Positions 422-56,019 are shown, numbered from the stretch's first letter. The stretch: DNA of 64,000 bases from Candidatus Eremiobacterota bacterium (GCA_031082125.1 JAVHLM010000017.1:1-64000); one strand, 5' to 3'. Made by a program: numbers and translations. Notes: generated by a model from the sequence alone, not told the origin.

Positions 422-3400
422 ATGAGTGGAGAGATTTCATCAATCAGAGGCACCGGTGCACTCCAGTATTCACCGGAGGTCTATGCAGAGCTTCAGGCGC
501 GGCAGATGGCCCGCGATGCCCAGCTCCAGCAGGCAGGTACACTGCCCATTGAGAGGCTCACGCCCCAGCAGGTCTCGGAATACCAGCAGTTTTACAACGG
601 CACGCTCGACAACATAGACCGGCTGAGATATCCCTGCAGCTTCCCCTCGCTCCAGCCTTCACAGGATGACGAAAGATCAACAGGAAACGAGGCACAGACT
701 GCGGCCAGAGAGCTCCACAGAGAGATCGTCGGCAACTCAGATGAGAGCAGCCTGAAAAGCATCCTCTCATCCCTCGACAAGGGAATGCTCGGCGAAATCA
801 AAAAAGAGTATCAGGAGCTTTACGGGATATCACTGGAAGAGGCTGTTTCAAATGCCGCCAGTGATGAAACCCGCGGGGAAATGCTGAGCCTCCTGGATGG
901 CGGCGGATCGGATGAGTCGAGGGCACCCCAGACAGCCAACCAGGCACCGAACCAGACACCGAATCAGAGACCGAATCAGACACCTAACCAGAGGCCGAAT
1001 CAGACGCCGAACCAGACACCGAATCAAACTCCGAATCAGACGCCCAATCAGACGCCTAATCAGACACCGAATCAGACACCGAACCAGACGCCTAATCAGA
1101 CGCCTAATCAGACGCCGAATCAAACACCTAATCAAACGCCGAACCAGACACCGAATCAAACACCGAATCAAACGCCCAATCAGATGCCGAACCAGACGCC
1201 TAATCAAACGCCCAATCAGACTCCGAACCAGACTCCGAATCAAAGGCCTCATATTCATCATATAGATCAGACTCCGAATCAGACACCCAATCAGCGTCCG
1301 AATCAGACGCCGAACCAGACGCCTAATCAGACACCGAACCAGACGCCTAATCAAACTCCGAACCAGACGCCGAATCAGACACCGAATCAGACACCGAATC
1401 AAACTCCGAATCAGACGCCCAATCAGACGCCTAACCAGACGCCTAATCAGACACCGAACCAGACACCGAACCAGACGCCTAATCAGACACCGAATCAGAC
1501 GCCGAACCAGACACCGAATCAAACTCCGAATCAGACGCCCAATCAGACGCCTAATCAGACACCGAATCAGACACCGAACCAGACGCCTAATCAGACGCCT
1601 AATCAGACACCGAACCAGACGCCGAATCAGACGCCTAATCAGACACCCAATCAGACGCCTAATCAAACTCCGAACCAGACGCCGAATCAGACACCGAATC
1701 AGACACCGAATCAAACGCCTAATCAGACGCCCAATCAGACGCCGAATCAGACACCTAATCAGACGCCGAATCAGACGCCGAATCAGACACCGAATCAGAC
1801 ACCGAACCAGACGCCTAATCAGACACCGAATCAGACACCGAATCAGACACCGAATCAAACTCCGAATCAGACGCCGAATCAGACACCCAATCAGACGCCT
1901 AATCAAACTCCGAACCAGACACCGAATCAGACACCGAATCAAACGCCGAATCAGACGCCCAATCAGACGCCTAACCAGACGCCTAATCAGACGCCGAACC
2001 AGACGCCTAACCAAACACCCAATCAGACACCGAATCAGACACCTAACCAGACGCCTAACCAGACGCCGAATCAGACACCTAATCAGACACCTAATCAGAC
2101 ACCCAATCAGACGCCGAACCAGTCACCCAATGCCAATAAATACACTGTGAAAGAGGGAGACTCTCTCTGGAAGATTGCTCATGAGAAAGGCGTTCCTTAT
2201 CAAGATGTGATCAAGGCAAATTCACAGCTCCCAAATCCAAACTTGATAAGGCCTGGTGATATCATCAATATCCCTTCCGTCTCAGGAACCACGGCCAATC
2301 AGAGACCTAACCAGACGCCTAACCAGGTGCCCAATCAGGTGCCTAACCAAACACCCAATCAGCGTCCGAATCAGACACCTAACCAGACGCCTAACCAGAC
2401 GCCTAATCAGACACCCAATCAGACGCCTAACCAGACACCCAATCAGACGCCTAACCAGACACCGAACCAGACGCCTAATCACACACCTAACCAGACACCG
2501 AACCAGACGCCTAATCACACACCTAACCAGACACCGAACCAGACGCCTAATCACACACCGAACCAGACGCCGAACCAGACGCCTAATCACACACCGAACC
2601 AGACACCGAACCAGACGCCTAATCACACACCTAACCAGACGCCGAATCACACGCCGAATCAGACACCGAACCAGACGCCTAATCACACACCGAATCAGAC
2701 GCCTAACCAGACGCCTAACCAGACGCCTAATCAAACACCGAACCAGACGCCGAATCACACACCCAACCAGACGCCGAACCAGACGCCTAATCACACACCG
2801 AACCAGACGCCTAATCACACACCGAACCAGCCCAGGCCTCAGCCTACACCTCAGCCTACACCGCAGCCTACGCCGCAGCCTACGCCTCAGCCCACGCCTC
2901 AGCCCAGGCCGCAGCCCACGCCTCAGCCCACGCCGCAGCCCACGCCGCAGCCTACGCCGCAGCCTACGCCTCAGCCCACACCTCAGCCCACACCTCAGCC
3001 CACGCCGGATCCTGCGCGCGAGGAGCCTCCTCGCATACAGCCGGGCGTTCCGACGGAGATTTCCAAGCAGCAGTTTGATGAGCTTGGCAAGCAGCAGCTC
3101 AAGACACAGGCCGACGACGATAAAAACAAGAACAAGGTTGATGACAGGGTGGAAGCCCTCCAGTATATGCAGCAGATAGGTGGGAGCATCGGGCTCCCGG
3201 CGGGTGTGAAACCGTCGGATATAAAGATATCCGACGTCAACAAGGACGGAAATTTCAACGTCGGCGACACCCTCTATTACAAGCAGGGCGACAAGTATAT
3301 GAAAGTGGTGCTTTCCGAGCAGAACGTGACTGACATGAACCGGGTGAAGAACGGCATCACGGCATCAGGAGCCCTCGGGCAGGCTGTCGAGAACGGAGAT

Positions 3401-4117
3401 GTGCGCTTCAACGGCTCCATGAACGGCCAGAAATACGATCCGCGCTACTGGAAAGAAATTGATCATCCCCTGAACCCGGGGAAAAAGATGTATGCGGTGA
3501 GAACTGAGGGGGCCGACGGGAAAGCGGGCACGGCCGACGATGTGACGCCCTTCAAGGCAGTCCAGACTATGTTCGACGGCACAGGGAAATACGCAACGGA
3601 CTGCGCAGCCCCGGTGCATATGGCAGGGCTCTACGAGGAGGCCCTCACCCTCGGCCCGGACAAGTTCAACGAGAAATACAAGAACCTTGCCATCAATGGA
3701 TGGTTCAAGGTCTCCGAGAGCTCGACACAGGTTGACACCTCGGGAAGCTCCGTCGCCAAGCCTCTCCCCGGCGTTGAGGTCAAACTCGACAACGGCGTGG
3801 TGCGCAATTACGTTGACGCCGACAAGACCACGGAGCTGGGAGCGGTGCTGAGGCCCAACGATTTCGTGTACTTCCAGAATCCTGATCCCTCCAAGGTGGG
3901 CCAGGCCACCCAGGGAGAAAACACCAGGTTTGCAGGATTCGACTCCCAGGGCAGGCCGCAGTTCTCCTGCAACCCCAGCGGCGTGGTTACCGCAGAGCGC
4001 GTGCAGATTCCGGGAACGGATCCCCCCAAGTTTGGTTGGGGAGTGAAGCTCGGCGCTTTTGACAGCAAACCCTGGTTGATGCAGACAGGAGGAGTAGGGC
4101 ACACTGCCGGCACCTAG
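422..4117 (+). CDS. TPNQ-repeat protein with central LysM and C-terminal Tgl-like transglutaminase domain
   Basis: A 1231-residue protein. The ATG at 422 is preferred over an in-frame GTG at 362 because GGGGAGG sits 5 nt upstream of it. Order: a non-repetitive N-terminus (1-174) without a signal peptide; about 96 TPNQ-type tetrapeptides (175-567) interrupted once by a His-rich RPHIHHIDQ; one LysM domain (about 572-619, YTVKEGDSLWKIA...IRPGDIINIP); 44 more tetrapeptides (628-803); a PQPT stretch (to about 862); a Lys-rich linker; an EF-hand-like loop DVNKDGNFNVGD (about 938-949); and a C-terminal domain. That last domain resembles Bacillus Tgl transglutaminase: YATDCAAP with candidate nucleophile Cys1061, then LGPDKFNEKY, then YFQNPDP and GEN with Glu1166, in the same order as Tgl's Cys116 and Glu187 segments as I recall them. 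Inference: a peptidoglycan-associated protein that crosslinks glutamines, possibly its own. The gene is monocistronic, with its own promoter and terminator. Confidence 0.8.
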   Translation: MSGEISSIRGTGALQYSPEVYAELQARQMARDAQLQQAGTLPIERLTPQQVSEYQQFYNGTLDNIDRLRYPCSFPSLQPSQDDERSTGNEAQTAARELHREIVGNSDESSLKSILSSLDKGMLGEIKKEYQELYGISLEEAVSNAASDETRGEMLSLLDGGGSDESRAPQTANQAPNQTPNQRPNQTPNQRPNQTPNQTPNQTPNQTPNQTPNQTPNQTPNQTPNQTPNQTPNQTPNQTPNQTPNQTPNQTPNQMPNQTPNQTPNQTPNQTPNQRPHIHHIDQTPNQTPNQRPNQTPNQTPNQTPNQTPNQTPNQTPNQTPNQTPNQTPNQTPNQTPNQTPNQTPNQTPNQTPNQTPNQTPNQTPNQTPNQTPNQTPNQTPNQTPNQTPNQTPNQTPNQTPNQTPNQTPNQTPNQTPNQTPNQTPNQTPNQTPNQTPNQTPNQTPNQTPNQTPNQTPNQTPNQTPNQTPNQTPNQTPNQTPNQTPNQTPNQTPNQTPNQTPNQTPNQTPNQTPNQTPNQTPNQTPNQTPNQTPNQTPNQTPNQTPNQTPNQTPNQTPNQTPNQTPNQSPNANKYTVKEGDSLWKIAHEKGVPYQDVIKANSQLPNPNLIRPGDIINIPSVSGTTANQRPNQTPNQVPNQVPNQTPNQRPNQTPNQTPNQTPNQTPNQTPNQTPNQTPNQTPNQTPNHTPNQTPNQTPNHTPNQTPNQTPNHTPNQTPNQTPNHTPNQTPNQTPNHTPNQTPNHTPNQTPNQTPNHTPNQTPNQTPNQTPNQTPNQTPNHTPNQTPNQTPNHTPNQTPNHTPNQPRPQPTPQPTPQPTPQPTPQPTPQPRPQPTPQPTPQPTPQPTPQPTPQPTPQPTPQPTPDPAREEPPRIQPGVPTEISKQQFDELGKQQLKTQADDDKNKNKVDDRVEALQYMQQIGGSIGLPAGVKPSDIKISDVNKDGNFNVGDTLYYKQGDKYMKVVLSEQNVTDMNRVKNGITASGALGQAVENGDVRFNGSMNGQKYDPRYWKEIDHPLNPGKKMYAVRTEGADGKAGTADDVTPFKAVQTMFDGTGKYATDCAAPVHMAGLYEEALTLGPDKFNEKYKNLAINGWFKVSESSTQVDTSGSSVAKPLPGVEVKLDNGVVRNYVDADKTTELGAVLRPNDFVYFQNPDPSKVGQATQGENTRFAGFDSQGRPQFSCNPSGVVTAERVQIPGTDPPKFGWGVKLGAFDSKPWLMQTGGVGHTAGT
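944..2122 (+). repeat. 12-bp coding minisatellite, block 1 (TPNQ, about 96 units)
   Basis: Tandem 12-bp units of the form ACN-CCN-AAY-CAR encode TPNQ, with rare R, M or A variants at the first position. Thr, Pro, Asn and Gln codons vary freely at third positions (ACG/ACA/ACT, CCG/CCT/CCC, AAT/AAC, CAG/CAA) while the peptide is almost invariant. Longer identical stretches recur, suggesting segmental duplication as well as slippage. One 27-bp interruption encoding RPHIHHIDQ lies near 1243-1269. Confidence 0.97.
2303..2830 (+). repeat. 12-bp coding minisatellite, block 2 (44 units with periodic TPNH)
   Basis: The same 12-bp unit continues after the LysM domain. It begins with RPNQ, TPNQ and VPNQ variants. 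From about 2477 on, every second or third unit is CAC instead of CAG/CAA (TPNH), giving a higher-order 24-36 bp period (for example TPNHTPNQTPNQ). Block 1 has no such histidines, so the two blocks expanded independently. Confidence 0.95.
2831..3007 (+). repeat. PQPT proline-rich coding repeat
   Basis: CCN-CAG-CCN-ACN units (PQPT, two PQPR variants) run for about 59 residues between the TPNQ block and the C-terminal globular part. They probably form a stiff polyproline-like spacer. The unit is again 12 bp and may derive from the TPNQ unit, but Asn is absent. Confidence 0.93.
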
Positions 4118-4140
4118 ATCCCGGCCCGCCTCACGTTGAA

Positions 4141-4175
4141 AAAAAAGAGAGCCCCGCGCGGGGCTCTCTTTTTTT
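4141..4175. terminator. bidirectional intrinsic terminator
   Basis: A 12-bp perfect inverted repeat (AGAGAGCCCCGC / GCGGGGCTCTCT, 4146-4169) is flanked by six As on the left and a run of Ts on the right. It can therefore stop transcription from the repeat-protein gene on the + strand and from the convergent gene ending at 4196 on the - strand. Confidence 0.9.
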
Positions 4176-4195
4176 CCGCAGAAACAGGGCGGGGC

Positions 4196-4756
4196 TTACA
4201 TGAAGGTAACGGCAGTCTTTGCCGTGAGGGCCCCATCCCACACCTTGGTGAAATCCACTGACAGGCCTGGCGAGCGCTCAATGTCCTTGGGCACTTCCTT
4301 GATCACCATGTGGAAGGCATACTGGCCCTCCTCTGCGATGGAACAGCCCAGCTTGGGCCCCAGGTGAACGCAGAAGGTGTAGGTTCCCGGGGGGAAGCCC
4401 GCAAGGGCCATGTTCTCATCCACGACAGGAGGGGCCGAGCCGGCATAGAGAAAGCGATAATGGCTCCCGCTGCCAAAAGTGAGAGGCACGGAGAAAATCC
4501 CGTCAGGCGGCAGTTCCATGAAATCGCTCTCGGAGAGCGGGGGCGTGATTGTGGGTCCGAAGGGCACCACCTCGTAATCTCCTGCGAAAAGCCCTGTCAT
4601 GAGGCGGTGCGTTGCCATATAAGTGCAGAAAATGATTGACCCGAAAGAGATATTGGTCATCTTTGCGTCAAACTCTGGAAGCTCCCCGCCCCGGTAAGCA
4701 TTTTTCCGGGGCACAAGCTCCAGCTTGAGTCCCATGCATATGGAATTATCGGTCAT
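4196..4756 (-). CDS. hypothetical protein, possible Ig-like/BsuPI-like fold
   Basis: A 186-residue protein starting MTDNSICMGLKLELVP. The ATG at 4756 is chosen over an ATG 13 codons upstream because AGGGAG lies 8 nt before it. It has no signal peptide or membrane segment. The N-terminal part (LKLELVPRKNAYRGGELPEF followed by MTNIS) has the feel of beta-sandwich proteins such as the BsuPI intracellular proteinase inhibitor, and the end includes a strand-rich GTYTFCVHLGP segment. That similarity is weak and no function is assigned. It converges on the TPNQ gene through a shared terminator, so there is no operon partner on its side. Confidence 0.65.
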   Translation of the reverse strand: MTDNSICMGLKLELVPRKNAYRGGELPEFDAKMTNISFGSIIFCTYMATHRLMTGLFAGDYEVVPFGPTITPPLSESDFMELPPDGIFSVPLTFGSGSHYRFLYAGSAPPVVDENMALAGFPPGTYTFCVHLGPKLGCSIAEEGQYAFHMVIKEVPKDIERSPGLSVDFTKVWDGALTAKTAVTFM

Positions 4757-5053
4757 ATTGTCCACTCCCTTCACTAAAGCCTGGGGATGTCCCACTTCTC
4801 CAGAGAGAAGGCTTTTCCTTCTCAGCTTACCCTCTTCATATGGAAAAGCCCTTCCCCCGACAGGCCTTGTGGTGATTATTTCCCCAAAACGCGTCTTACA
4901 CAGAAAGTTGGCCGATTTTTCAACGCTTTCGCAAAGAAAAGTTCATTTATTACCCTTTTATGCTACAATCCAAAAAAAGATACTTTTTGCAGCATTGCGC
5001 ATTTCAAGCCGGGAAATTGGGCCTCATGGCCTATACCAAAAGACCAGTTTATA

Positions 5054-54783: not shown

Positions 54784-56019
54784 CTATCTCTTTGCCGTGG
54801 GGTTCTTCACCGTGCCCATGAAGAGAATGCTCCCTGTAGCGTTCTCCCTGATGAGGAAAAGGAAAGGATGATCGACGGTGAACTTGATGATCCGGGGAGG
54901 CTCGGTAGGCATGGCTCCTCCTGCCATCACCACGGCTGTGGCGGCAGCTGCCTCCGTTCCCTCCTCGTTGACGTCAACAAAGGCCTTGTGAATCACTTCC
55001 GAAATGAAGAGAAGCTTGGTCCCGTCTATCCCCGAGAAGTCGGCGGGGCCGAACTGAAAGGGGGTTTTCATCCCCAGGGCCTTGAGAAGCTTCCCCAGGA
55101 AAAATGACGACGTGGTCGTAAACTTTGGGAGCGCGAGGTCCACCGTGGCGGCCGAGAGTGAGCGGATATCCTTTGCGCAGGCTTTTTCATCGTACCGGGA
55201 AAGGAATGCTTCCAGCCCGTCCCGGGCATCGGGGAGCACCACGATCATGGAGAGCTCTGATCTTTTATAGGGGATAGCAAGAACCTGGTAGCCTTTCCCT
55301 TTCAGATAGCTCATCCTGTACTGGGCATGCATCATGGCCACCTTGATCTCATTTTTCCCTCCTGCCCAGAACCGTTCTTTTTTTGTGAGGCGCTTTTCAA
55401 ACTGCTCTCCCCATTCACTTTTGAAATATATGGCATTGGTGAGCACGAGCCTGCTGTCGGCATCAAGCGCGCCGGGAGGGATGAGGTCCCTGATTCTTTT
55501 TTTCGTGGCATCCTCAATCCACTTGTTGATTACCTGCCGCGCTTCCTCGGTGCGCTTCTTGAAGTCCACTTCGCCAAGGCCTGACTGGTAGAATTTCTTT
55601 TCATCGTCAAGAAAGCTCGGCAGAAACTTGTAACCCTTCTGCCCCCACAGCCTGTTGGCCACTACAAGCTCGTAACACTCCCTGTCTTCCCTGTTATTGA
55701 ATCGGTCCAGGAGCTCCTGGAAGGCAGGGTGCAGTTTCGCGGGGGGAAGGGTGAAGTGAAGCGTCTTTGCCATCTCATCGGCAGTGGCTCCCCTGGCGCC
55801 GAGGTAAGTCATCGCGAGCGCCGTTGAGATGCTGTAGGGGGAAAAGAAGAGATTCTCGCCCTTTTTATCGAGCTTGCTGAGCACCGAAAAAGCAAAGGCA
55901 TTGTTGCTCCCCACGAGGGCTTCTGTATCACCGGAAGGAGCATTTTCTGCATAGAGAGGCAAAGTGCTGGAAAATGCGAAGAATATCAGAAAGTAAAGCA
56001 CAAGAGAGTTTTTTTTCAC
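54784..56019 (-). CDS. secreted serpin (serine protease inhibitor)
   Basis: A 411-residue serpin with a GTG start (GAGGAGCG 8 nt upstream) and signal peptide ending near LYAEN. Canonical landmarks: NLFFSPYSISTALAMTYLGA, LTNAIYFKSEWGEQF, then the hinge NEEGTEAAAATAVVM, HPFLFLIRE and SILFMGTVKNP. The Ala-rich hinge (E-E-G-T-E-A-A-A-A-T) is the inhibitory type, so it should trap proteases. The reactive-site P1 residue cannot be fixed because loop length is ambiguous; candidates are small or Met residues, implying elastase- or subtilisin-like targets. Bacterial serpins are uncommon. It is near a sulfatase and a propeller lipoprotein, all envelope-facing. Confidence 0.93.
   Translation of the reverse strand: MKKNSLVLYFLIFFAFSSTLPLYAENAPSGDTEALVGSNNAFAFSVLSKLDKKGENLFFSPYSISTALAMTYLGARGATADEMAKTLHFTLPPAKLHPAFQELLDRFNNREDRECYELVVANRLWGQKGYKFLPSFLDDEKKFYQSGLGEVDFKKRTEEARQVINKWIEDATKKRIRDLIPPGALDADSRLVLTNAIYFKSEWGEQFEKRLTKKERFWAGGKNEIKVAMMHAQYRMSYLKGKGYQVLAIPYKRSELSMIVVLPDARDGLEAFLSRYDEKACAKDIRSLSAATVDLALPKFTTTSSFFLGKLLKALGMKTPFQFGPADFSGIDGTKLLFISEVIHKAFVDVNEEGTEAAAATAVVMAGGAMPTEPPRIIKFTVDHPFLFLIRENATGSILFMGTVKNPTAKR

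What the first reader, a model, noticed from the sequence alone, without database searches (positions are those of the whole stretch)
422..4117. A glutamine-repeat array, a peptidoglycan-binding LysM and a Tgl-like transglutaminase in one protein
Seen: about 140 TPNQ-type tetrapeptides flank a LysM domain, and the C-terminus holds YATDCAAP (Cys1061), GPDKFNEKY, YFQNP and GEN (Glu1166) in the order seen in Bacillus Tgl around Cys116 and Glu187. Tgl crosslinks spore-coat proteins through glutamine and lysine side chains. Here more than 100 glutamines in a regular, unstructured array are covalently attached to the enzyme, and a Lys-rich linker (KQQLKTQ...DDDKNKNKVDD) precedes it. Inference: a self-crosslinking surface or coat fibre, with LysM as the wall anchor and a possible calcium loop as a switch. 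There is no Sec signal, so either export is unusual or it is released late, as in spore coats. I know of no described protein with this combination.
Basis: partly seen in the sequence, partly recalled or inferred. Interest (0 to 1): 0.93.

Follow-up and report, generated by a model that had tools for sequence, protein, structure and literature searches.

The report
Annexin-LysM-transglutaminase repeat protein with partner
An unnamed bacterium encodes a long modular protein that ends in a distant relative of a protein-crosslinking enzyme, starts with a tag shared by a family of enzyme-carrying proteins, and in relatives always sits next to the same small gene, so it looks more like an exported enzyme with a keeper protein than a self-knitting fibre.

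Summary
In detail: window 422-4117 (+) encodes 1231 aa with 141 xPNx tetrapeptides around a LysM, and a C-terminal PF20085 (Tgl) domain (E 7e-8, over cut-off), Cys1061 and Glu1166 as stated. (1) The first ~77 aa are a module, unknown to Pfam, shared with 12 other proteins of this genome that carry VanY, SLT, NlpC/P60, CHAP, HNH, calpain or annexin domains and no Sec signal; one degenerate annexin repeat follows it. (2) Genome-wide, PNQ arrays lie in only three genes: this one, a Tgl paralogue and a genuine four-repeat annexin. (3) Among 149 genomes of the phylum, the same six hold the Tgl domain and a small unnamed gene, always adjacent (window 4196-4758, -). The self-crosslinking idea is weakened: arrays in two of six genomes have no Gln, Pro-Asn is the unvarying core, Tgl's essential His200 is Asn or Ile here, and Spo0A is absent. 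Best reading: an exported, envelope-acting Tgl-type enzyme of an effector-like family with an adjacent inhibitor- or immunity-type partner. Catalysis, export route and partner role are inferred; structure models failed.

The parts
422..4117 (+). whole gene: N-module - annexin-like repeat - xPNx array - LysM - xPNx array - PQPT array - Ca-loop-like motifs - Tgl domain
470..655 (+). N-terminal module (residues 17-78) shared with 12 other proteins of the genome
   Evidence: no Pfam family
704..874 (+). single degenerate annexin-like repeat (GxGT loop and GDTSG acid lost)
944..1243 (+). xPNx array run 1 (25 units)
1271..2134 (+). xPNx array run 2 (72 units)
2141..2275 (+). LysM domain
   Evidence: PF01476 E 1.1e-12
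2303..2830 (+). xPNx array run 3 (44 units, with TPNH)
2828..3013 (+). Pro-Gln (TPQP) array
3119..3154 (+). possible calcium loop DKNKNKVDDRVE (kept in paralogue as DRNGNRVDDRVE)
   Evidence: motif by eye only
3233..3268 (+). possible EF-hand/dockerin-like loop DVNKDGNFNVGD
   Evidence: (Dockerin_1 E 0.06, below cut-off)
3530..3925 (+). Tgl (PF20085) catalytic region
3599..3604 (+). Asp1060-Cys1061 (= Glu115-Cys116 of Tgl), invariant in 7 family members
3917..3922 (+). Glu1166-Asn1167 (= Glu187-Asn188 of Tgl); Glu is Thr in three relatives, Asn invariant
3971..3973 (+). Asn1184 at the place of Tgl His200
4140..4176 (.). hairpin with A and T runs, probable terminator for the two convergent genes
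   Evidence: read by eye
4196..4758 (-). conserved partner gene (186 aa, no known family), candidate inhibitor/immunity protein

Best explanation
The protein is an exported, cell-envelope-acting enzyme of an effector-like family. Its N-terminal module works as a sorting tag that takes a set of signal-peptide-less enzymes (wall hydrolases, a nuclease, a calpain protease, annexins, this Tgl) out of the cytoplasm by a route not identified. The annexin-like repeat and LysM are targeting parts (membrane surface, peptidoglycan); the Pro-Asn array is a flexible hydrophilic stalk. The C-terminal Tgl-type papain-fold domain acts through Cys1061 on glutamine side chains (crosslinking, amine addition or deamidation). 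The small adjacent gene encodes a protein that holds the enzyme inactive in the producer, as an inhibitor or immunity protein. Shown: domains, shared module, selection on the array, partner linkage. Inferred: export, catalysis, partner role.
For: Tgl profile match in seven proteins of six genomes, all over cut-off; the family profile finds solved Tgl chains 7c9j (7e-19) and 4p8i (2.5e-10); Asp-Cys-Ala and Gln-Gly-x-Asn are invariant. N-module: pairwise E 2e-10 to the C10 annexin; a three-sequence profile finds eight more proteins at 5e-16 to 2e-6; the 13-sequence profile finds members in six further genomes; C-termini are VanY, SLT, NlpC/P60, CHAP, HNH, Peptidase_C2, and none of those checked has a hydrophobic N-terminus. 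Partner: found in the same 6 of 149 genomes as the Tgl domain and in no others, adjacent in all six, co-directional in one family and convergent in two others; no invariant Lys or Gln, so no conserved substrate site; the G026 copy has a Sec-type signal. Array: non-syn/syn ratio 0.015-0.21 in six arrays, Gln absent from two. Precedent: a single annexin domain followed by an enzymatic toxin domain (PMC3482391).
Against: No contractile-sheath family PF04984 in this genome; other secretion systems were not tested. No recurrent immunity-like neighbour at the other N-module genes. Tgl relatives outside this genome have no recognised N-module, and the paralogue lacks both module and adjacent partner. 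His200 of Tgl is not conserved. Linkage of the partner is also what one would see for a substrate or chaperone.
Confidence: 0.42

Rival explanations
1. Self- or co-crosslinking envelope protein: the Tgl domain joins glutamines of PNQ arrays, its own and those of the TPNQ-bearing annexin, to lysines, making a covalent surface layer anchored by LysM.
For: The PNQ array occurs genome-wide only in the two Tgl proteins and one annexin; Gln kept in 130 of 141 units with synonymous drift; no Sec signal but LysM present.
Against: Arrays without any Gln in G142 and G026; Pro and Asn, not Gln, are the unvarying positions; the array has no Lys; LysM is not kept in relatives; TPNQ sharing with the annexin may be common descent, since N-module and annexin repeat are shared too.
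Confidence: 0.22
2. The Tgl domain is a non-catalytic or differently acting papain-fold domain (binding or hydrolysis) and does not crosslink; the partner is its ligand.
For: His200 to Asn/Ile, Glu115 to Asp, Glu187 to Thr in some; inactive transglutaminase domains are known in polymorphic toxins (PMC3482391).
Against: Asp-Cys-Ala and QGxN are invariant in seven divergent proteins, as for a kept active site; Tgl works through Cys plus an acid (PMC6490927).
Confidence: 0.25
3. Spore- or cyst-coat protein like Bacillus Tgl.
For: Best LysM model is SafA-like (below cut-off); Tgl family.
Against: Spo0A absent from the 97.6% complete genome; neighbouring genes do not look like coat genes by eye.
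Confidence: 0.04

Closest known systems
Tgl, Bacillus spore-coat protein-glutamine gamma-glutamyltransferase (PF20085; PDB 4p8i, 7c9j; PMC6490927)
   Same: profile match, YxxDCA around the nucleophile, FN, YFxNP, GEN in the same order
   Different: Glu115 is Asp, essential His200 is Asn; embedded in a 1231-aa modular protein with array, LysM and annexin parts; no Spo0A in the genome
PVC/eCIS-type polymorphic toxins with a single annexin domain before an enzymatic C-terminus (Zhang et al. 2012, PMC3482391); bacterial annexins (PMC3894181)
   Same: one annexin repeat and a C-terminal enzyme; variable C-termini behind a shared N-terminus
   Different: no PVC metallopeptidase seen, no PF04984 sheath in the genome, different N-module, Tgl as C-terminus, LysM and PNQ array
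Eukaryotic annexins (annexin A5, A6)
   Same: the C10 protein of the same genome matches annexin VI at 2e-90 over four repeats
   Different: the window repeat is single and lacks the calcium loop
SafA/LysM coat proteins
   Same: LysM closest to TIGR02899
   Different: below its cut-off; no Spo0A

Membership tests
Tgl (PF20085) | profile match over curated cut-off | tested here: met
   32.5 vs 23.7 bits; six genomes
Tgl (PF20085) | catalytic Cys116 | tested here: met
   Cys1061, invariant in 7
Tgl (PF20085) | Glu115 (essential in Tgl) | tested here: inconclusive
   Asp1060, Asp in all 7
Tgl (PF20085) | Glu187 | tested here: met
   Glu1166 here; Thr in G144, G018, G026
Tgl (PF20085) | His200 (no activity when Ala) | tested here: not met
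   Asn1184 here, Ile in three relatives
Tgl (PF20085) | Tgl fold | tested here: inconclusive
   AlphaFold2 model pLDDT 39.8, unusable
Tgl (PF20085) | crosslinking activity | not testable with these tools
   needs protein
Bacillus-type spore-coat Tgl | sporulating host | tested here: not met
   no Spo0A_C
Annexin | PF00191 match | tested here: inconclusive
   23.2 bits in protein scan (cut-off 25), 29.1 in genome search
Annexin | four repeats | tested here: not met
   one repeat here; four in the C10 protein
Annexin | GxGT ... D/E calcium site | tested here: not met
   VGNSDE and NAASD in the window repeat
Polymorphic toxin / secreted effector | shared N-terminal module with varied C-terminal enzymes | tested here: met
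   that the module traffics is inference
Polymorphic toxin / secreted effector | adjacent immunity gene | tested here: inconclusive
   partner linked to Tgl in 6 of 6 genomes, but nothing recurrent at other N-module genes
Polymorphic toxin / secreted effector | contractile injection system (sheath PF04984) | tested here: not met
   absent in own genome
Polymorphic toxin / secreted effector | other secretion systems (T3SS, T6SS TssC, T7SS) | not tested
Polymorphic toxin / secreted effector | toxicity neutralised by partner | not testable with these tools
   needs experiment

The most novel reading that the evidence does not exclude
The N-module marks clients of an undescribed, Sec-independent and sheath-independent export route in this phylum, and the Tgl protein uses the Pro-Asn-Gln array as a shared substrate tag to crosslink itself to a bacterial four-repeat annexin on a membrane or wall, kept in check by the linked partner: a bacterial annexin-transglutaminase crosslinking system.
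Probability: 0.12. Interest if true: 0.88.

Novelty: new variant of a known kind. Interest (0 to 1): 0.6.

Why it matters
It ties a Tgl-type enzyme, so far known mainly as a spore-coat crosslinker, to annexins, wall hydrolases and a conserved partner gene in a bacterium without Spo0A. It offers a testable enzyme-inhibitor pair and a new N-terminal module that may predict which proteins of a little-studied phylum leave the cytoplasm.

Tried and rejected
AlphaFold2 of the Tgl domain and of the partner on two-sequence alignments gave pLDDT 39.8 and 34.2, so no fold search was run. Relatives from whole-genome searches were not sent to the folding tool because its stated rule does not list them. 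Viral contigs and plasmids hold no relative of Tgl domain or partner. The genome-contig scan gave one relative, L007. Spore coat: rejected, no Spo0A. Contractile injection: no PF04984 in own genome. The PADLOC 'REase_II' match (6e-56, nine stretches) has its best stretch in the array (503-570) and is put down to the repeat. Partner against Pfam, NCBIfam and PDB: nothing significant. The co-occurrence figure 1/C(149,6) = 7e-11 ignores relatedness; the fair statement is three families (f1, f11, f12) with different gene orientation.

Full report
Observation. The gene at 422-4117 (+) starts with ATG behind AAGGGGAGG and encodes 1231 aa. The array is under selection for its peptide: 30 distinct DNA units, 207 synonymous and 27 non-synonymous differences, per-site ratio 0.037; all non-synonymous ones fall on the Thr and Gln positions, none on Pro or Asn. 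Units were picked by the PN pattern, but the runs are unbroken apart from one 9-aa insert and the LysM, so the invariance is not only an effect of the picking.

What was missed at the N-terminus. Residues 95-150 match annexin (23.2 bits in the protein scan, 29.1 in the genome search, cut-off 25). The repeat is degenerate: the calcium loop and the acid of GDTSG are lost. The same genome encodes true annexins; the C10 protein has four repeats (Pfam 7e-102, annexin VI 2e-90), split two and two by 13 TPNQ units. A pattern for three PNQ units matches 178 times in 7.43 Mb, and all matches fall in three genes: 107 in the window gene, 60 in a Tgl paralogue on C4, 11 in this annexin.

A shared N-terminal module. 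The first ~77 aa align with the annexins (E 2e-10 pairwise). A profile of the three finds eight other proteins of 265-392 aa at 5e-16 to 2e-6, and further ones weakly; 13 proteins in all with the window's. Their C-termini include VanY, SLT, NlpC/P60, CHAP, peptidoglycan-binding, HNH and calpain domains. None of those checked has a hydrophobic N-terminus, although several should act on peptidoglycan. A 13-sequence profile finds members in six more genomes of the phylum, some with calpain-like or other cysteine-enzyme-like C-termini by eye. The genes are scattered and have no common neighbour. The inference is that the module is a sorting or export tag. No Pfam family covers it.

The Tgl family in this phylum. 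Of 149 genomes only six carry PF20085. Their proteins have low-complexity repeat regions in front of the domain: TPNQ, GPNQTPNQ, GxEPNQ, GPNA, GANPNA, or a GGNAQPGVN repeat. Two of these arrays (G142, G026) have no Gln at all; LysM and annexin are not shared. This makes the array a stalk-like spacer built on Pro-Asn rather than a dedicated glutamine substrate, at least in general.

Active site. In Tgl of B. subtilis Cys116, Glu115 and His200 are needed, while Glu187Ala keeps about 60% (PMC6490927). A profile of seven family members aligns with solved Tgl chains (7c9j 7e-19, 4p8i 2.5e-10). Cys116 is invariant. Glu115 is Asp in all seven. Glu187 is kept in four and Thr in three. Asn188 is invariant. 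His200 is Asn in four and Ile in three. So the nucleophile and an acid beside it are kept, but a residue that Tgl needs is not; catalysis is likely but its kind is open.

The partner gene. Next to the Tgl gene lies a 186-aa gene of no known family (window 4196-4758, -), behind a hairpin that looks like a shared terminator. Its relatives occur in exactly the same six genomes and always beside the Tgl gene: convergent in families f1 and f11, co-directional and close in f12. The G026 copy has a Sec-type signal. Six sequences share ten invariant residues, none Lys or Gln, which speaks against a conserved crosslinking substrate and for an inhibitor or immunity protein. The paralogue on C4 has no partner beside it.

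Reading. A single annexin domain followed by an enzymatic C-terminus is a described toxin architecture of contractile injection systems (PMC3482391), and enzyme-fused annexins are known (PMC3894181). In this phylum the annexin proteins of G026 and G144 are also very long, and in G144 a sheath gene lies about 23 kb from the annexin gene. But this genome has no PF04984 sheath, so the delivery route is unknown. I therefore place the protein as an exported, effector-like Tgl-type enzyme with a linked keeper protein, at confidence 0.42, with the self-crosslinking envelope protein (0.22) and a differently acting or inactive domain (0.25) as rivals.

Limits. Structure predictions failed on shallow alignments. 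The phylum is not named by the tools.

Noticed in passing
L045:7145-8950 (C10 of the same genome): A genuine four-repeat bacterial annexin with a 13-unit TPNQ linker and Met/Gln-rich N-terminus; matches annexin VI at 2e-90.
   Followed up: partly
L044:7127-9984 (C14): A second multi-repeat annexin gene or pair with proline-alanine linkers and a masked stretch.
   Followed up: no
L085:5924-7072 and L085:7551-8744: Two N-module genes on opposite strands of one 3-kb stretch: a calpain-family protease and a protein of no known family.
   Followed up: partly
L046:5010-9437 (G026): Protein with five annexin repeats, hydrophobic middle and a C-terminus that looks calpain-like by eye (Pfam reports only annexin).
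   Followed up: partly
L047:4091-12343 (G144): 2751-aa open frame with annexin repeats about 23 kb from contractile-sheath genes on the same contig.
   Followed up: no
L003:478-4937: Long cytosolic-looking protein with many repeats of the kind KTDEGKKAFTELYREAAKDPQVASQLISSQAAS, partly masked.
   Followed up: no
window 1928-2131 (residues 503-570 of the gene at 422-4117): PADLOC model REase_II matches the TPNQ array at 6e-56; a likely repeat artefact of that model.
   Followed up: partly
window 54784-56019 (-): Reads like a serpin with a signal peptide, by eye only.
   Followed up: no
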